Shown: piece after piece, positions 21,983 through 42,325 of the stretch
Layout: each line of letters starts with the position of its first letter
Numbering within the stretch: position 1 is the first letter of the stretch
Assembly: GCF_000004825.1 (NCBI RefSeq)
Contig: NW_008805094.1
Span: 1-64,000, forward strand
DNA: 64,000 bases
Direction: 5' to 3'
Source of the DNA: Heterostelium album PN500
Lineage: Eukaryota; Evosea; Eumycetozoa; Acytosteliales; Acytosteliaceae
Notes under the pieces: model-generated
Databases searched by the model: none
Told to the model about the DNA's origin: nothing
The model's input: the letters and a program-made list of their open reading frames with translations, nothing else
Translations under genes and position numbers: made by a program

Positions 21983-22855
21983 ATGTCGAAATATATAAAT
22001 TTATTAAAGAAAACAGATGTTATTATACCTTCGTTGAGAGAATCTTCACAGAATGGTATAAGAAGTTTTGTAAATAGTAGTAGTAACAATAGTAATACGA
22101 TCAATATGGTAGGGCAATTGTCATCTGAAGTTGGTAGAATGAATTACTATTCTGGTGGTCACTACGGTGGACACCCACAGTTCTATGCAAACTACCCTGC
22201 CGATCCAATGCGAAAGAAAGCAACTACCATTCTCTCGGTGCGTCGTGGTAACAAAGTGGTGATCATCGGTGACGGTCAAGTATCACAGGGACACTCTATC
22301 GTCAAGCCAAACGCAAAGAAGATAAGAAGATTGGCAGACGGCAAGATCGTTGCGGGTTTCGCCGGTTCGGTAGCTGATGCCTTCACACTGTTTGAGTTGC
22401 TCGAGAAGAAGCTCACCGAACACCGTGGACTGCTGCTAAAGTCGTGTGTTGAACTCGCACAGCAGTGGCGTACCGACAAGTACTACCGTCGTCTCGAGGC
22501 AAGTCTGATCGTTGCCGACAAAGACATAACACTGAACATCGATGGTAACGGTGATGTTCTCGAGCCAAACGATGGTGTACTTGCAATCGGTAGCGGTGGT
22601 GAGTTTGCTCTTTCCGCAGCGAGAGCACTACTAACCGTACCAGACCTAGATGCCGAGGAGATCGCCAGACGTTCAATGAAGATCGCCGCCGACATTTGTA
22701 TATACACAAATCACAACTTTATTTTAGAGACAATCGAAATCGACCCATCGAAATCACCATCGACAGCTTCAACTCAATACTCTCAACAATTAGATTTATC
22801 ACAAGCGCCACCAACCACAAAAGATGAAAATAATAATAATAACAATCAAAAATAA
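21983..22855 (+). CDS. hslV: HslV/ClpQ peptidase, mitochondrial
   Basis: HslV is the threonine-protease half of the bacterial HslUV (ClpYQ) protease; the HslU ATPase unfolds substrates and feeds them to the HslV dodecamer. This intronless gene encodes 290 aa. The first about 80 residues are an extra leader (Ser/Asn-rich with basic residues) not present in bacterial HslV, consistent with a mitochondrial presequence removed to expose Thr81. The mature part begins [19 protein letters not shown] and continues with family motifs [53 protein letters not shown] and DICIYTNH, so the active-site Thr and surrounding residues are intact. A short Asn/Gln-rich tail follows. Eukaryotic HslV occurs in few lineages (dictyostelids, kinetoplastids, apicomplexans). 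The partner hslU is not in this window. Confidence 0.95.
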
Positions 22856-25918: not shown

Positions 25919-27082
25919 ATGTCAATGATTAATAATTTAATAAAACAACAATCAAGATCTATTTATTTATATAAAAATAGTTATATTAAATTATATTTTT
26001 CAAGTAAATCTAAATTAACTACATTATCAGCTACAAGAAATAAAGTTGTTAAAGATCATCATTTAGCAGATAATAATACAAGAGTAAAAAGTAAAGATGA
26101 AGATAATAATAATCATTTAAAAGTTGTACATGATTCATTCATTTCATTGGCAGACCTATCACCTGTTTCAAAGGTTTCATCTACGACAACATCTAAAGCG
26201 AAAAAGATTAGTTTAAAAGATGATAGCAAAGCAGTTGATAAACCAGCAGAAATCAAATCAAACAGTAAACCAAAAACTAATGAAAAGAATAACAATCCTA
26301 AATGGATGTCAAAGAAATGGTTTACAACTACTGATATTGATATTGACAATGATATTAATAGTTTAAATCTAAATGATAATAATGAACAAAAAGAAGTAGA
26401 AGAAGAAATAATAGCAGAAGAAGAAGAAGTACAATTGGAACTACTAGTAGAGAAATTAGAAGAAGTAGAAAAGATAAATAATGTAAAGAAAGGAACAGAT
26501 TTTGAATTGTTAAGTATTAATGCTCTATCGAAATATGGTTTCGATTTGAAGAGAGTTGGTGGTGCTGGTGATAAAGGAATAGACTTTACTGGTGTTTGGA
26601 GACTGCCAGAAAGTAGTAGTAGTAGTAATGGCGGTGGTCATAGTAAAAGTAGTAATCAAGAATTTAATATAGTTGGACAATGTAAACATTATAAAACAAG
26701 AATAGGTCCTGTTGTATTAAGAGAGTTTGAATCAACATTACAAAGATTCATTGATAACAATAATAATAATAATAATAATAATAATTGCAATCAATCACAA
26801 CAACAACAATTTAACTGTATAGGAATCCTAACAAGTTATACAAGATTCTCTGATATCTTACAATCAGAAATCGATTCAATTAACAATCCATTGATTCTCT
26901 CTCAGATAACAGAAAAAGGTATACTTGCATTCATTATGAACAAAACCGCAAGAAAACTATTACCATCACTCTTGATAGTCAGTAGAAAACAACCATCCAA
27001 TTACAACAATAGAATCAATAATAATAATAATAGTTTAAAAGATAAATATCAATCAACCGTTGAATTATGTTATACTAAATAA
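25919..27082 (+). CDS. RRG7/DUF2034-like mitochondrial PD-(D/E)XK nuclease-fold protein
   Basis: Intronless, 387 aa. The N-terminus (MSMINNLIKQQSRSIYLYKN) is basic and lacks acidic residues, as in a mitochondrial presequence. A long Lys/Asp/Glu/Asn-rich linker follows (about 40-185). The folded part begins KGTDFELLSINALSKYGFDL and contains KRVGGAGDKGIDFTGVW and, after a Ser/Gly insertion, VGQCKHYK...GPVVLREFE. Asp222 and Gln254-x-Lys256 correspond to the D...(E/Q)xK catalytic pattern of Mrr/PD-(D/E)XK enzymes and match the DUF2034 family that includes yeast RRG7, required for respiratory growth and located in mitochondria. A C-terminal strand/helix part (CIGILTSYTRFSD, KGILAFIMN) completes the fold. 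Nuclease activity and substrate are inference. An Asn tract sits inside the domain. The stop is 17 bp from the stop of the convergent neighbour. Confidence 0.8.
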   Translation: MSMINNLIKQQSRSIYLYKNSYIKLYFSSKSKLTTLSATRNKVVKDHHLADNNTRVKSKDEDNNNHLKVVHDSFISLADLSPVSKVSSTTTSKAKKISLKDDSKAVDKPAEIKSNSKPKTNEKNNNPKWMSKKWFTTTDIDIDNDINSLNLNDNNEQKEVEEEIIAEEEEVQLELLVEKLEEVEKINNVKKGTDFELLSINALSKYGFDLKRVGGAGDKGIDFTGVWRLPESSSSSNGGGHSKSSNQEFNIVGQCKHYKTRIGPVVLREFESTLQRFIDNNNNNNNNNNCNQSQQQQFNCIGILTSYTRFSDILQSEIDSINNPLILSQITEKGILAFIMNKTARKLLPSLLIVSRKQPSNYNNRINNNNNSLKDKYQSTVELCYTK

Positions 27083-28786: not shown

Positions 28787-29193
28787 CCTGTGCCTATACT
28801 ATGTGTTTGTTCGATTCAGCACCCGAATTGCAATTATCATTATTTTTATATCAAAAAAAAATATAAAAAAAAATAAAAAGGTTCTTTATTTAGTTCTATA
28901 GAGCCTACAACAAAAAATTTGGTGTCATAGAAGATTAATATTGTAGAATTTATTCTCATATTATCACAGTAAATTATTGTTATAATTTTGAAATAAATTA
29001 TGGTGGTTCAATAAATCTTCTGAAGATAAACATTTTTTTAAATGAGAATCATATTTTTAATTTTGTCAGTGTATATAATAGCAATCAACACTCTTTTATA
29101 ACTTATCCCTAATATTATTTATTACTTATGAAGAAAATAGAATAAAATAAATAAATACCAATAGTTTGAATATTATAAAAATAGATTACAAAA

Positions 29194-29265
29194 AATTATT
29201 TATTAATAAATTTTTGATCATTATCACAATATTTATTTATTAATAAACTTTTGTAGATTATCAAT
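29194..29265. repeat. Imperfect tandem duplication of about 36 bp
   Basis: Two adjacent copies share the core TTATTTATTAATAAA(T/C)TTTTG followed by a similar ATTATCA segment. A partial third copy (ATTTATTAATAATTTATTATTAAC) begins at about 29266. It is AT-rich and lies in the 3' half of the gap between the MTRR-like gene and dgcA. No function is assigned. Confidence 0.5.
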
Positions 29266-31851
29266 ATTTATTAATAATTTATTATTAACATCTTCATAAG
29301 TCCATTATCGCAACATCACAATCTAGTATGAACAATTAATGTTATTGATTGAACACTTAATTCGTATGAAAATAATATTCATTGTATTGTTCAAAAAGAG
29401 TATTATCGTTTTTGGTCAGGAAGAGCAAAGATGTTTATTTATCTCTATCAAAGAGTATGGATGTTAATCTCTTTATATATTAAAAATTGAATGAAAGAGC
29501 AATGACAATGAGATTTAATCTTAATATGTGTATACATATATAGGAATACCATTATTTTGTCAAAGGAATAGACAGGTGATTAACTTGTTATGAGAGGTTA
29601 TTTTTATTATTCAATTTGAGAAGAGATCATTTCACTCATAGGATATAGAACTGATAAGGTTATTTTTGTCTATATTTGGTTATAGAAATAGTTCAAGATT
29701 CAAACCACTGTCCAATCAATTAAATCTATCGTTAATCAATCAGAAATGAATAAATAGATACTATATTGGGAAAAAAATCAATTTATTATGACTGATATAG
29801 ACAGATTCAAAATATCTATTTCATAAATGATCGAGGTGTGAAAGATTTAACTGAACCAAACTATTACCAAAATGGTGGGTATAATTATTTGATCAATCTC
29901 CAACCGAATAAAACAACAAAAATCAAAATAACCCACTTTCTTCTTTTATCAAAAAATTGATATCTATACACATGCCTGTATCTCTCTCAAAATTGAGGAT
30001 GATTCGACTGTTTTTTATACTAGATCTAAAATGTATGGACCATATCCATTTTAAATTAACATAGACTTTTATTTTTATGGAGAGATATAGATTATTATTT
30101 TGCTTGAATTGTAAGCGTCAAAGGACATTGATTTTACCAAAACGATACAACTAACGGTTGTTCTTATAATTATTGAAATCGTTGCAAGCACATGGGGATT
30201 GTTCGGAACTGACAGAACTTTTTTGGTTCGACAATTAAAACAACTAACTACAGTATAATTCCTAAAGGTTAGGGTTTACTCGTGTATCTGTAAAAGCAAG
30301 AGCTTATAACAAAGTAAAAGAAAAGAATTTAAAATAATACAACGCGATCACATAATGATCACATGATCTCATTAATAATGTTACCATTTATCTTAATCAA
30401 AAGATCAAGTTATTGGAATTTGATCACTAAACCATCGAAACAAAAAAAACTACCCAACAACCAAAGCACAATAAAACACAAATGTAATGGTTGATATCAA
30501 AACCTACAATGACGGTTGTTGTAACGATTAGGTTAAGGTACTTGAAAATGAATTACCCTTTTATAGAATAATCAATCGTTGGTGCAAACTCTATAGAGTG
30601 TACATGAGGTTGTTGTTATTCTAGAAATATTTGCCAAGAGATATGGTGTTATGGCTCATTCGATCAGCAAAGCACAAGGTTGTTGCTAGCCATTAGTGAA
30701 ACATAACGATCAGGCACCGCTCCGCTTTCACGCTCCGGTACTAAAGAAACCAAAGTATGAATGTGCAACATTCTCTTTTCTTTCATGAAAAATAAAACAA
30801 AATACACTGTGTCATTATATCTAATAATTTATTATTACTTTGGATCGTTGGTTTATAAAAAATTGGAAAGATTTTTGAAACTAATAGTAAGATTAAAATT
30901 TTAAAAAAACTTGACACTCAACAAATCTAATCATAATAATGCACAATCAAACAAACACTTTAACACACACACACAGACTTATTATTTAAAGAAAATCTTT
31001 AGTTTATGATACGAAACATATGATCAATTATGTTGATGTGATTGAGCGAGATGGGTATGTAATTCTCATATATAATTTATTTTAATAGCACCAACAATCA
31101 CACACTAAAGATTATCAAGTTATGACATAATTGATAATTCTGTCCAGCATTGGACACTCTAATATAACACACACTATCATCAGTATTGGTGTTTGAGTGC
31201 ATGTGTTGTGTGGTGTGTGAAATGTGTGGTGTGTTTATATCATTCTGACTTAACAAACACACAAGTTTTTGTTCTTTATGTAGTAAAGAGAAAGTCTGTG
31301 TTTTTACAGCATAACTAATGACTATCTACAGGGTGTGGAATCGATTTTAAGTAATAAAGTGTTGTAAGGAAAAAGGGCAGGACTGATAGTGCTGATGATT
31401 GATATAATCAAATTAATAAATAATTGGATTCAATTTAATTTGTTTGTGATTGAACGATCGGCTAAAATATAGATAGTGAACTAATCCTTGTTTTTATGAA
31501 TAAGTGCAGCAATAATATTATTGGTATTGATCAGGTGTTAGTTGTTTGTTGTTTTGGACAGACATAAAAATAAATTAATTACAAAAGTATTCATTCTACC
31601 TGGCATGCTCTCTTTCTACAACTATCATAACAACTTAAAGACAAACATGAATTCTCTTTCTCCCCAATACATAAACAAAAGAACACACAACCTTCCAAAT
31701 CCATATCATTATCCAAATCCAAACAACACCAAACAAAAAAACTAAAAAAAGGTTTAGAAAATAATTAATTATTAAAAAGCAATTTGCTACATTTACATTT
31801 GTTTTTTTATTTATTTAGGTGTTGCCATATTGTTATTAATTGCTGAGAGAA

Positions 31852-32079
31852 AGGTTACCTAACCCGCCACACGCGCGCCGCTCACATGTGAGTGTCCTGT
31901 GCGTATTACCTCCCAAAATGAAAAACTATTACTAAGTTGGTGTAAATGCACAGTTGTCAAAAGCTATATAAATGGAATAATTGCGTCTGTTCCATTCGAA
32001 TGGCTCCAATTCAAAGTGAAATATCTTATCTTGTTACAATAATAGAGGTAAGCTTACCTACTCCTCACCAGGTTTACCT
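31852..32079. promoter_or_regulatory. Cluster of perfect palindromes, candidate regulatory module
   Basis: Within 230 bp lie AGGTTACCT (31852-31860, one central mismatch), CTCACATGTGAG (31881-31892), CCATTCGAATGG (31992-32003), AGGTAAGCTTACCT (32046-32059) and AGGTTTACCT (32070-32079). Three of these share the AGGT...ACCT half-site arrangement, and CACATGTG is an E-box-like core. Such symmetric sites fit binding by dimeric transcription factors. They sit about 2.9 kb upstream of the dgcA start codon. Which gene they serve, if any, is inference. Confidence 0.35.
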
Positions 32080-34918
32080 GTAGTTTCTCTGCTTTTCTGA
32101 ACCATGAAAAACTGCTTGCTCTTTCTTTTTATGACTGATAAAGCTATCTACTACTACCTTTCTCTTCGTTTGCAATTGTTATTATTATTGTTGTTGTTGT
32201 ATTTATATATGTGTTCCACTTTCAATATGGTCCAACATATTTGAATGGCAAATGTCTGTTCAAATAGTATGGACATTTCAAATTTCAAATATAATAGACC
32301 ACCCACCTCTTTCTTTATTAGTAAAGATTAATGAATTTATACGATTCTCTGTCTCATATTAATACCAAATTCACCACCAAACAATTAAATTTCAAACAAT
32401 TATTTACTCTACTACCAAGATCTAATAGAAAGATATCTAACACAACCACATGACCACAACACTCACCTCCTCACACACCACCACCAACAACAACAACAAC
32501 AACAACACTAAACACAACACGACAACAATTAACACATTAATTAATAAACACATGATAAAACTAAACACTTTCCAACATTGGCAATATATGATATCACTAT
32601 TCAATAGTTGCATCCTCTATATTCTTAGTAATATAATATATGGTCATTTCCTTTCATATCCAATCCTTTTCACTGGATCACTCACACTACTACTACTTTT
32701 TCTTACTACTTTATATCAATTCCATTGTTCCAATTTTTAACAATTTTCATTAAAAATGTACAGTTTATTGAATTTTCACCATTTATTAGACGCAATCGTT
32801 CTATTCAAATATCTATAGATATATATCTAATCCATCAAATATTGCATCCAAATAATAACTCAATCTATGTATGTATCTAATTTTTTATCTCTATTGCTTC
32901 TGTAATTTTAATCTGTTGTTGCAGCTCTTTATGTTTTATCAATATGTGTGAAATCCAGCTGTAAATAATTTCAAAAAAAATATCATGACATCACTCCAAT
33001 TTTTATACCATCCATCACCAAAACAATTAATTTTGTGAAATATCCAAACACTAAATTTAAGATTTTAGTTTAAAAAAACAATCGTAGTATCTTAGTATGT
33101 ATGGATATCGACAATCATATCATATGTGATATACTATTAATCAATCAGTAGTAGTGTTAATTAATCAATATAATATGAATAGTAATATATGTGGTTTGTT
33201 TTATTATTTTTATATTTTTTGTGTCTCTACTGAAACTCTGGATATCAATCCAATCCATCAATAAATAATACAATAAATATATAATTTCATAAACACCGCG
33301 GTGGAACAAAATCGATAGCCATTGGATAGAGTGTTGTTTTTTATATGCCTCTCCATTAGCTTGTTAAAAGGTTTGCTTCATATGGTTTTGTTTCGGTCCT
33401 ATAACCCGCTCCCTTTACCAAATATGGAGCATCATTGTTAATTTTTTTGGAGCTAGAATCAATTAAGGATGTTTCGTTTGTAAGGGGAATACATAAATTA
33501 TAACTGTTTAGTCACTAGGAGTGAGGTATATACTCCCTTCCACCAAACAATAAAAATCTCTTAGGGTTTGTTGAAATAAATCTCTTAATCTGCACCTCCA
33601 CCTTAATCGTTACCAAACATTTAAACCAACATCATATTTATTTTATTTGTTAAATATTGTTTCCAAATACAAACAAACAAACAGAATTCATTCATTATTA
33701 AATATCTCTAATCCCCAATAGCTTTCAACTATAGTTTTCGATCAGGTATGATTTTACACTTTATATTTATTTTTTAAAACAAATTTTTTTTATAATAATA
33801 ATTTCACTACTATACCAAAATAATATTTATTTAATAATTTAAATCACTCTTTTTATTTTTAAAAGTAACGACAATAGTAACAATAATATTTAAAATAAAC
33901 AAACCATCACCTCAATTTTTTTGTATGATAATTTTATTTTTTGCCAATAACAATTGCCAAAAATATCTTTAATATTAGTAGTGCAAACAGTATTGTATTA
34001 CTATATAAATAATAAAATCAACTCACCACATCATCAACCACAAGTACTTATCAACCATCATTCAACACAAAAAAAATATTGATCATCAACCACCAACCAC
34101 CACCACCACTCATTTAAATGGTAATAAAAAACTTAATCACTCGTCCTATATATATGTGTGTATGATATCATTCACCACCACATCTACTAGAAACATTGTT
34201 TAGTGTAAAAAATTTTCCATAAAAAATAATATTCAACTATACAAACCAATACCAAAAAAAACAAATTTATTAAAACAGCAGTGATCATTAGCAGCTACCT
34301 ATTTTACACATGCTGGTATCACAATAATGAATTTGGCAATTATTAACCATTAATTAATGACCAACACAAAAATTAATTATAAAATCAGTTGTTTGAAAAA
34401 AAACTACTACTTTATATCGATTTTGAAATCTATCAAACGATCTGCACTAGATACAATCAAAAAAGTAGTGGAGGTTTAATTGCAGACATCACCTACACCT
34501 AAAAAAAAATCTCACACTCACGAAGTAACCAAAATCACTGCTCCTATATATGTCTAATTTATATTTTCAGTAAAGGGAATAAACCCTTTTACTAATTGTT
34601 TTTATGATTATATTAATTTTTTTTACCATATTACTATTTAATCACAAACTCATTTTATAATTAATACCATTTTAATTTTAAACCATCCTTTTTAAATAAA
34701 CATATTGATTTTGGCATTATAGTTTTACCTAATGTCCAATTATTATTCAATTCAACAACTATTTCTAACACCAAAATCATTTATTATAATTTTAGTAAAA
34801 TAGACACGAGATCAATTCACTAATTATAATAAAATTAGTAGGAATTGAAATAATAAGAAATATAGTTATCATTAAAATATATAGCTGTGTAGTAGACTGC
34901 CACATAAATTAATTAGTT

Positions 34919-36106
34919 ATGGAATTAATTAAAGAATTATTTTTAGTTCAACAACCAGCCAACAATATAAATTTCAAATCATTTGACCAACACTATACAA
35001 CCATGAATAACTACAATCAACTATATAAATCCTACGATCAGTTCGATGTCAACAATAGTCAAAATGAATGGATAGTGCCAACAACCATCTCGACACCTGG
35101 TTACATTAAAATTGAATATACATCGTCACTTCCAATATATTTAACCATCATTTTTTCAATTGTTATTTGTTGCATCTATAAGTATTTAAAGGCTGATCGT
35201 CAAATCATTCAATATGCCAATACATTCAAAGAGATTTTGGACCACACTCCAACTTTAATTTTGGTCGAAATTTGTTTTTCTGGTCGTCGTCTCGTCAAGA
35301 CTTCCAATCCAGTGTTATCACGTCAATCACAAGATCAAATTCTCTCCTATGATCACCAACAACAATCCATCAACCAATCATCGATTGAATCGTTCTGCGA
35401 GCACTATGGTTTGGATGCCTTCAATTTGGAGCGTGTCCTCTCCACCAGCATGACCCGTGACTCCATTGTCAAGGGTAACAACTCACAGAAATACCGTTTC
35501 ACCGGTACCTACGATTCAAACACCCAAACATTCAAGGGTGTTATTTTTGACATTAGCCAAGAAGAGTCGGAATTGAAACGTCTCAAATATATTTTGGCAC
35601 ACGATCCACTCACTGGATTGCAAAATCGCTATCGTTTGAACCAGAAAATTCAAAAATTTTGCTCAAAGAGCACCACCGACTTGTGTGCCGTCTTTTTCAT
35701 CGATGTAAATAAATTCAAACAAATCAACGACACATACGGTCACGACTCTGGTGACTTGGTCTTGAAGCACCTCTCCGAGCGTCTCCAAGAATCACAAGGT
35801 AACGATACCCTGCCAATCCGTCTTTCTGGCGACGAGTTTCTCGTAGTCAAACGCGGTATCTCATCGATTGAAGATGCCAACCAATATATTGTCAACTACT
35901 TGAATGGAGTCGCCGCCGCTCCAGTCCAAGTCGCAACCGGTGTTTCCATCTACCTTTCACTCAGCTACGGTGGTGTTGTCTTCCAAAAATCCGAAACCGC
36001 ACCACAATCGGTCGACCAAATCATCAAATCCGCCGATGAAAAGATGTATCAAATGAAACGTAGTGGTGCATCAGTTCAAAACGTCACATTGTACCGTCAA
36101 AACTAA
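34919..36106 (+). CDS. dgcA: Diguanylate cyclase DgcA (GGDEF domain)
   Basis: DgcA makes cyclic di-GMP from two GTP. In D. discoideum this is the secreted signal that induces stalk-cell differentiation, and dictyostelids are the known eukaryotes using it. The intronless gene encodes 395 aa. A single transmembrane helix lies at about residues 71-90 (SLPIYLTIIFSIVICCIYKY). The GGDEF domain spans about 220-390, with the entry motif HDPLTGLQNRYRL (228-240), the metal/GTP-binding FFIDVNKFKQINDTYGHDSGD (259-279, Asp262) and the signature SGDEF at 303-307, where Ser replaces the first Gly. The region 100-215 could be a degenerate PAS-like sensor. The allosteric I-site RxxD five residues before the signature is absent (Gly294...Thr297). 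An in-frame ATG at codon 29 is an alternative start. It follows a 6-kb non-coding region. Confidence 0.95.
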   Translation: MELIKELFLVQQPANNINFKSFDQHYTTMNNYNQLYKSYDQFDVNNSQNEWIVPTTISTPGYIKIEYTSSLPIYLTIIFSIVICCIYKYLKADRQIIQYANTFKEILDHTPTLILVEICFSGRRLVKTSNPVLSRQSQDQILSYDHQQQSINQSSIESFCEHYGLDAFNLERVLSTSMTRDSIVKGNNSQKYRFTGTYDSNTQTFKGVIFDISQEESELKRLKYILAHDPLTGLQNRYRLNQKIQKFCSKSTTDLCAVFFIDVNKFKQINDTYGHDSGDLVLKHLSERLQESQGNDTLPIRLSGDEFLVVKRGISSIEDANQYIVNYLNGVAAAPVQVATGVSIYLSLSYGGVVFQKSETAPQSVDQIIKSADEKMYQMKRSGASVQNVTLYRQN

Positions 36107-40253: not shown

Positions 40254-42325
40254 CTATTTAGACTTGCCAAATAATGAAGAACCTCTCTTTGACTTTACAG
40301 TTAATGATCCGTAGATCTTGTTAAGTGTTGATCTGATCTCTTTGAATTTAGGTCTCTTCTTGGCCTTGTCGACCCAACATGCCTTTATAAGCTTGGCATA
40401 CTCAGAGGGACAGTCAGCGGGCACCACTGGACGTTCACCTTTGCAAACCATCACTGGAATCGACCAACTGTTGACACCATCGTATGGATCTCTGCGACAA
40501 AAGATCTCCCAAAGTACGATACCGAACGAGTAGACATCACACGACTCTGTATATGGTTCATTTCTAAAAACTTCTGGTGCCATCCAACAACTGGTACCCA
40601 AATTCAATGTCATCTGCTTTGACAGATCCAAAGATCTACTCGTACCGAAATCAATGACTTTACCTCTCATATCATCTGTAATTAAAACATTTCCACTGTA
40701 TTGTTGTTTTAAAAAATAAGAAAATATTAATAACCAAGCTACTAGTAAAATAATTATAATAATAATAAAAACATACCTCTTTAGATCTCTATGAATTACA
40801 CCTAATGAATGTAAATACTCCATACCATTAGCAACATCTAAAGCTATTGAAACTTGTTGAGCGTAGGTCAAAGATATCTCTTTGTTCAACAGTATATCTC
40901 TCAAACAACCACCTTTGATCAGCTCACTAACATGAAATAGATAATTGCTCTTCTCTGTATTTGCACCATAAAACTCTGTAAAACACTCGTGATCTACCAA
41001 ACTATTAAATAATAAACAATTTATAAAGAAAGATTAGTTGTTGTTGTTGTTTGTAAATTAAGAAATTATTAAGCAACAACATTCAACTTACCTCATAATT
41101 GAAACTTCTCTATCGAATTCCTCTCTACTGAAACAAATGTTGTCAGCGCTGTAAACTTTGATCGCTACATCTTTACCTTTGTATAGACCTTTGTGAACTT
41201 TACCAGATGCACCGGATGCAATAACTTCACCCAGTGTAATGTCGGTACTCTTTATTTCATTGTGTACTCTGATCTTGTTTCTCATTACGTTGGTCAAGAT
41301 ATCTTCGAATGACTGTGTTCTAAGTAGTTCAGGTAGAGTCTTTCCATTGATCAAAGGTACGAATTTTTCAATCTGTACTTCCGGTGGTGACATTGGAATT
41401 GGTTGTATGGTTGGCGATGATTGTTGTACTGGTCTGGACACTGAGCTATCCGTGGAAATCTGACGACGATGTAAAGCAGGTGAATTATTAGCACTGGTGG
41501 TTGGTGATGATGTTGTTGTTGTTGTTGGATTGATTAATATACCCTCACTACCATTGAGTGAAAGTTGTGATATTTGGTGAGTCAAGTTGGGATTGGAGTT
41601 GTTGACAACGTAGATGGTGGTGTTTGGTGGTAGTTGAGAAAGCACGATGTTAGTGCCTGGAACTTCGATAGAGTTTCTTCCAGTTCCATTCTGAAGATCG
41701 AGTGATTGACGATTATTATTATTATTATTATGTACAAGTGGATGGCTATTGCCGTTGATCAGTGGTATCACTGGTGATGGTGGTGTGTTGGTTCGAGAGA
41801 GTGGCGGTGTGACCGGCGAAGCAGATGCACTGATTGAAATGTTTGGAATGGGTGTTGTTTGTGGTCTTGGTTGCACTGCTGTTGGTGTTGGTGATGGTGT
41901 AGACGATGCTGACTTTGGTTGAGAATCACAGGAATCACAAACAAAACTACCATGTATATAGAAGAATCCTCCTTTTATAATTGTATTACACTATTTATTT
42001 GATATTTTTTATATTAATAACTAATTATATAATTAAACATCTAAAAAATACTTACAGTTGAACATATAAAACATTCTGGATGAAATATTTTACTACGAGC
42101 ATTTACTATTGTGCTTTGAATGGGTAATGTGCAGTGATCGCATTTCTTGGCATAGAGAGCGACTTCACATGGATCACAATATAGTTTACCATCCTTGTAG
42201 AAAAATGATTCTAAAGCAGTGTTACAATTTGAACAAACGAAACACTCCTCGTGGAACAACTTTCCCTTGGCTCTGATTCTAGAGGATTTAATCACTCCAC
42301 CACAAACGTCACATGGATCTGACAT
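40254..42325 (-). CDS. LIM-domain protein kinase (TKL group)
   Basis: Four exons (42056-42325, 41092-41990, 40777-41001, 40254-40695) give 611 aa. Two LIM zinc fingers occupy residues 1-110: CDVCGGVI...FHEECFVCSNC...LYCDPC, then CDHCTLPI...FHPECFICSTC...FVCDSCD, the second split by intron 1. A Pro/Ser/Thr-rich linker (about 110-270) precedes a kinase domain with glycine loop ASGASGKVHKG, VAIKVYS lysine, catalytic HRDLKSGN (spliced across intron 3), DFGTS and GTSCWMAPEV; the subdomain VI pattern HRDLKSGN fits TKL/LISK kinases. The order LIM-LIM-kinase recalls animal LIM kinases, but no PDZ domain is present; cofilin as substrate would be inference. The C-terminus (KSKRGSSLFGKSK) is basic. All introns have canonical donors and acceptors. 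Confidence 0.9.

What the first reader, a model, noticed from the sequence alone, without database searches (positions are those of the whole stretch)
34919..36106. Eukaryotic c-di-GMP synthase gene (dgcA), intronless, in a dictyostelid genome
A complete GGDEF diguanylate cyclase with one membrane helix sits among ordinary eukaryotic genes. In dictyostelids this enzyme makes the stalk-inducing signal c-di-GMP. It has no introns whereas most neighbours do, and its family is otherwise bacterial, which fits an old horizontal acquisition.
Basis: partly seen in the sequence, partly recalled or inferred. Interest (0 to 1): 0.7.

Follow-up and report, generated by a model that had tools for sequence, protein, structure and literature searches.

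The report
Known slime-mould c-di-GMP synthase gene
This is the slime-mould gene dgcA, a bacterial-type enzyme gene that makes the signal c-di-GMP; it is real, but it has already been described and knocked out, apparently in this very species.

Summary
An intronless 395-codon ORF at 34919-36106 (+) encodes one membrane helix and a C-terminal GGDEF domain (E 4e-33). It is the only GGDEF match in its 32.9 Mb genome. Genome statistics and copy number fit Polysphondylium pallidum PN500, whose dgcA (PPL_07541) has a published knockout (PMC10559540). The gene is already known.

Lack of introns is weak evidence for transfer, because three neighbours also look intronless. My tree names no donor (support 2/30).

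Added here: the signature is SGDEF, the RxxD inhibition site is absent, and exon-wise searches found no EAL, HD-GYP or PilZ domain in the genome. Residues about 95-212 may be a diverged PAS-type sensor: structure prediction leans that way, but sequence tests were negative and one receiver-domain protein also aligns there. That unproven domain is the only lead of interest.

The parts
34919..36106 (+). dgcA coding sequence, 395 aa, single exon, stop included
35126..35185 (+). predicted membrane helix, about residues 70-89, followed by the basic stretch KYLKADR (C-terminal side inferred cytosolic)
   Evidence: hydropathy peak 2.10 at residues 68-86; helix 73-89 in the model
35201..35554 (+). residues about 95-212, possible diverged PAS-type domain (unproven)
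   Evidence: predicted beta strands 182-185, 191-199, 204-211; PAS-like order of elements when PAS rows were supplied, low confidence; sequence tests negative
35555..35599 (+). linker helix, residues 213-227, joining the middle region to GGDEF
   Evidence: helix 213-227 in both models
35597..36070 (+). GGDEF diguanylate cyclase domain
   Evidence: PF00990 at residues 227-384; same place in the genome search
35825..35839 (+). active-site signature SGDEF, residues 303-307
35798..35809 (+). place of the primary inhibition site, residues 294-297, reading GNDT instead of RxxD

Best explanation
The feature is the dictyostelid diguanylate cyclase gene dgcA, very probably P. pallidum PPL_07541. The protein is held in a membrane by one helix with its catalytic half in the cytosol. 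Two GGDEF domains come together and condense two GTP into c-di-GMP. In D. discoideum, c-di-GMP is secreted and activates adenylate cyclase A, cAMP and protein kinase A, which turns prestalk cells into stalk; in P. pallidum it is needed for timely aggregation, side branching and a normal stalk. Shown here: the ORF, the GGDEF domain, the catalytic residues, the single membrane helix and the single copy. Published elsewhere: expression, mutant phenotype and the D. discoideum pathway. Inferred: topology, dimer mechanism and activity of this SGDEF version.
Against: The first glycine of GGDEF is serine. Many degenerate GGDEF proteins are thought inactive, and the purified cytoplasmic part of the SGDEF protein MbaA showed no cyclase activity in vitro although it seems to make c-di-GMP in the cell. 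I saw no activity measurement on the P. pallidum protein. I did not see the EFA79490 sequence, so identity with PPL_07541 rests on genome statistics and copy number. No other dictyostelid sequence was available for a tree.
Confidence: 0.95

Rival explanations
1. Bacterial contamination of the assembly, for example from food bacteria, and not a gene of the amoeba.
For: The domain is typical of bacteria: the 80 loci kept from the prokaryote genome collection are bacterial by title (that collection holds no eukaryotes).
Against: The gene lies inside an AT-rich contig between eukaryotic genes, some with intron-like breaks. The CDS is 40.0% GC, inside the 26.5-43.6% range of nine other coding stretches of the window. 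The best bacterial matches are only about 35% identical. A P. pallidum dgcA is published with promoter and knockout data.
Confidence: 0.01
2. A degenerate, catalytically inactive GGDEF protein that acts as a c-di-GMP receptor or scaffold.
For: SGDEF instead of GGDEF; degenerate GGDEF proteins can be receptors (passages of PMC3974145); purified MbaA, an SGDEF protein, lacked cyclase activity in vitro.
Against: The other catalytic residues checked are kept. AGDEF and SGDEF enzymes can be active. 7 of 73 bacterial rows carry S and 8 of 73 carry A at that place. With no RxxD site, a receptor role through that site is unlikely. P. pallidum dgcA mutants resemble acaA mutants, as expected for loss of c-di-GMP.
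Confidence: 0.03
3. A recent, not an ancient, acquisition from a present-day bacterial group.
For: GC3 of dgcA (43.9%) is the highest of the ten coding stretches compared, though only slightly.
Against: Only 1 of 369 gammaproteobacterial genomes has a match at E 1e-26 or better (at most 5 candidates scored per genome), and that match is 35% identical. The gene's branch is long, 1.97 changes per column, with no supported partner. Transfer into the last common ancestor of Dictyostelia is stated in print.
Confidence: 0.02

Closest known systems
P. pallidum dgcA (PPL_07541, EFA79490; PMC10559540)
   Same: Same species by genome statistics, single-copy diguanylate cyclase gene, long 5' intergenic region (2.5 kb used as promoter in print; no stop-to-stop ORF of 100 residues or more between about 28.9 and 34.9 kb here).
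   Different: No difference known; the record's sequence was not seen.
D. discoideum DgcA
   Same: Dictyostelid single-copy diguanylate cyclase.
   Different: D. discoideum mutants make no stalk at all; P. pallidum mutants make long thin stalks and aggregate late.
Bacterial GGDEF cyclases (PleD, DgcZ, YfiN/DgcN, PA0861)
   Different: Best-segment identity mostly 28-40%, SGDEF signature, no RxxD site, unrelated N-terminus.

Membership tests
GGDEF diguanylate cyclases (PF00990) | Match above Pfam's curated cut-off over the whole domain | tested here: met
   114.9 bits against 23.8, profile positions 2-159 of 161
GGDEF diguanylate cyclases (PF00990) | Catalytic and GTP-binding residues (D262, N270, D279, E306, K380) and a [G/A/S]G[D/E]EF loop | tested here: met
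   These residues are identical in 73 of 73 bacterial rows; loop SGDEF, S as in 7 of 73. Which residues are catalytic is recalled from PleD, from no call.
GGDEF diguanylate cyclases (PF00990) | RxxD inhibition site (common, not defining: about 53% of GGDEFs per a passage of PMC3974145) | tested here: not met
   GNDT at residues 294-297; 44 of 72 parsed bacterial rows (of 73) have RxxD
GGDEF diguanylate cyclases (PF00990) | Makes c-di-GMP from GTP | not testable with these tools
   No assay of this protein was seen
Dictyostelid DgcA | Single-copy GGDEF gene in a dictyostelid genome | tested here: met
   1 match in the own genome; species inferred from genome statistics
Dictyostelid DgcA | Groups with other dictyostelid DgcA proteins in a tree | not testable with these tools
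   No other dictyostelid sequence was available to me
Dictyostelid DgcA | Identity with EFA79490 / PPL_07541 | tested here: inconclusive
PAS-GGDEF proteins | A PAS domain directly before GGDEF | tested here: inconclusive
   Against: no Pfam PAS match at E up to 10; hhalign probability 0.5%; real segment ranks 393 of 1982 scored sequences, itself and its shuffles; DgcR 6zxb, recorded as a GGDEF/response regulator receiver protein, aligns over model residues 149-389, 214 residues at 3.7 A. For: three beta strands at 182-211 predicted from an alignment without PAS rows; PA0861 PAS-GGDEF-EAL second in Foldseek
Bacterial donor lineage | Supported sister group in a GGDEF tree | tested here: inconclusive
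   Support 2/30 at the fork holding this gene; long branch

The most novel reading that the evidence does not exclude
DgcA may carry a diverged PAS-type sensor domain (residues about 95-212) between its membrane helix and its catalytic domain. The enzyme lacks the RxxD site, and the exon-wise genome searches found no EAL or HD-GYP phosphodiesterase domain. If the PAS reading is right, this amoeba controls c-di-GMP mainly by switching the cyclase on through that domain, not by product inhibition or by breakdown with bacterial-type enzymes. That would explain the published mismatch in D. [quoted passage not shown]
Probability: 0.2. Interest if true: 0.45.

Novelty: already known. Interest (0 to 1): 0.15.

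Why it matters
DgcA is a well-known case of a bacterial second-messenger enzyme put to work in eukaryotic development. The gene and its role are already published, apparently for this species. What stays open is how DgcA activity is confined to the tip, how c-di-GMP leaves the cell, what senses it and what removes it. A sensor-like domain next to the catalytic part would make the first of these questions directly testable.

Tried and rejected
PAS domain by sequence: Pfam at E up to 10, hhalign of residues 93-217 as a single sequence against 20 bacterial PAS-type segments (probability 0.5%) and hmmsearch against 2000 shuffles of residues 93-222 (1982 of 2001 sequences were scored, the real one ranked 393) were all negative. 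The model made with PAS rows is biased towards PAS by its own alignment, and residues 136-183 there have pLDDT under 50. In the unbiased model a receiver-domain protein (DgcR, 6zxb) also aligns across residues 149-389, so other domain types are not excluded. VIA-align itself warns that parts before residue 203 were barely tested in that run.

Donor lineage: the genome-collection scan (180 stretches, 168 relatives, best 80 kept), 5 whole bacterial genomes (a sixth, that of L013, is not held), 369 gammaproteobacterial genomes (at most 5 candidates scored in each) and a 74-row tree (bootstrap not settled) gave no resolved donor. Alignment A1 and the tree used 73 of the 87 bacterial ORF pieces; 14 near-duplicate, partial or second-copy rows were dropped by hand. 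Alignment A2 used 19 of 20 PAS-type rows, chosen largely by eye; Pfam was run on 10 of the bacterial proteins, not all 10 of which have a PAS match next to GGDEF.

c-di-GMP partners in the own genome: EAL, PilZ and HD_5 gave 0 matches at E up to 1, with positive controls ringing in 7, 5 and 5 of 14 genomes. These searches read exon by exon, so a domain split by introns could be missed. STING gave 0, but its controls were silent in all 14, so that says nothing.

Species by primer sequences: passages of PMC4210663 and PMC13046832 say that primers are in supplements, which I could not read.

Literature on a PAS domain in Dictyostelium DgcA: one search found one paper, a Xanthomonas review seen only as a listing. 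The supplementary figure of PMC10559540 that may show domains was not readable. The search for eukaryotic GGDEF proteins in Amoebozoa found 0 papers. The search with EAL domain listed 10 papers, none Dictyostelium-centred by title. The library lacks most subscription papers; Chen and Schaap 2012 was not seen.

Full report
What is there. The window holds an intronless ORF at 34919-36106 (+), 395 residues. Pfam finds GGDEF at residues 227-384, E 4.1e-33. There is one hydrophobic peak at residues 68-86, followed by a basic stretch, so the catalytic part most likely faces the cytosol (inference). Pfam also lists a UvrA DNA-binding match at E 0.045, below its cut-off, which I take as chance. The genome-wide search of the own assembly (32,926,113 bases, 39 contigs) gives this one GGDEF match and no other.

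Which organism. Published figures for P. pallidum are 32.9 Mb, 52 contigs in 41 supercontigs and 68% AT; D. purpureum has 33.0 Mb in 799 supercontigs at 75.5% AT, and D. fasciculatum 31.0 Mb in 25 (Table 1 of PMC7259674, seen as a passage). D. fasciculatum also has 13 dgcA genes (PMC10559540). The window is 30.7% GC. The genome is therefore very probably P. pallidum PN500 (inference). PMC10559540 names its dgcA PPL_07541, GenBank EFA79490, and reports upregulation after aggregation, a promoter-lacZ pattern, and a mutant with late aggregation, long thin stalks and 87% lower sporulation (parts 1, 2 and 4 of 6 of the text read, plus passages). I did not see the EFA79490 sequence.

Anatomy of the enzyme. 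Against 73 bacterial GGDEF rows, D262, N270, D279, G304, E306 and K380 are invariant. The signature is SGDEF: 58 of 73 rows have G, 8 have A and 7 have S at the first place. Passages of PMC3974145 report an active AGDEF enzyme (VCA0965) and an active SGDEF enzyme (ECA3270). Passages of PMC8079147 say that the SGDEF protein MbaA seems to make c-di-GMP in the cell, although its purified cytoplasmic part showed no cyclase activity. So the serine neither rules activity in nor out. The RxxD inhibition site reads GNDT here, while 44 of 72 parsed rows have RxxD; about 53% of GGDEFs have the motif according to PMC3974145, so its absence is ordinary.

Origin. The best bacterial matches are about 35% identical and spread over many groups. 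One of 369 gammaproteobacterial genomes has a match at E 1e-26 or better. In a 74-row tree this gene sits on a long branch (1.97) in an unsupported group (2/30). That fits an old transfer, as stated in PMC10559540, but names no donor. GC of the CDS is 40.0%, within the 26.5-43.6% of nine other coding stretches; its GC3 of 43.9% is slightly the highest of the ten, so composition gives little evidence of foreign origin.

Wider pathway. The own genome gives no match to EAL, PilZ or HD_5 at E up to 1, while controls ring; intron-split domains could be missed. Passages of PMC10399225 report c-di-GMP concentrated at the tip of D. [quoted passage not shown] a passage of PMC4686194 raises the same possibility. 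This is where the PAS lead would matter.

Surroundings. Upstream, about 28.9-34.9 kb holds no stop-to-stop ORF of 100 residues or more, which fits the 2.5 kb promoter fragment in print. Pfam on ten neighbouring ORFs found FAD/NAD oxidoreductase, thymidine kinase, leucine-rich repeat, protein kinase, RRG7, methyltransferase, ABC transporter and proteasome domains in eight of them and nothing in two. ARAGORN found no tRNA (bacterial settings) and Rfam no match at gathering threshold in the window.

Verdict. It is already known, and apparently already studied in this species. Interest is low, apart from the unproven middle domain.

Noticed in passing
window 21983-22855 (+): A single-ORF proteasome-family protein (PF00227, E 1.1e-25) that by eye resembles bacterial HslV, with an N-terminal extension that could be a mitochondrial targeting sequence; the HslV naming is recalled and was not tested.
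   Followed up: no
window 25919-27082 (+): RRG7-like protein (PF10356, E 3e-13) with a weaker match to the Mrr restriction endonuclease catalytic domain (PF04471, E 6e-7).
   Followed up: no
window 40254-41033 (-): A protein kinase ORF that reads straight through what looks like an in-frame intron after HRDLK (GTATG ... ACAG).
   Followed up: partly
window 28900-34900: About 6 kb upstream of dgcA without a stop-to-stop ORF of 100 residues or more; small or intron-broken genes there are not excluded.
   Followed up: no
own genome (G000): No EAL, HD_5 (HD-GYP) or PilZ domain match at E up to 1 in exon-wise searches, so neither the bacterial c-di-GMP breakdown enzymes nor the common receptor were found.
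   Followed up: partly
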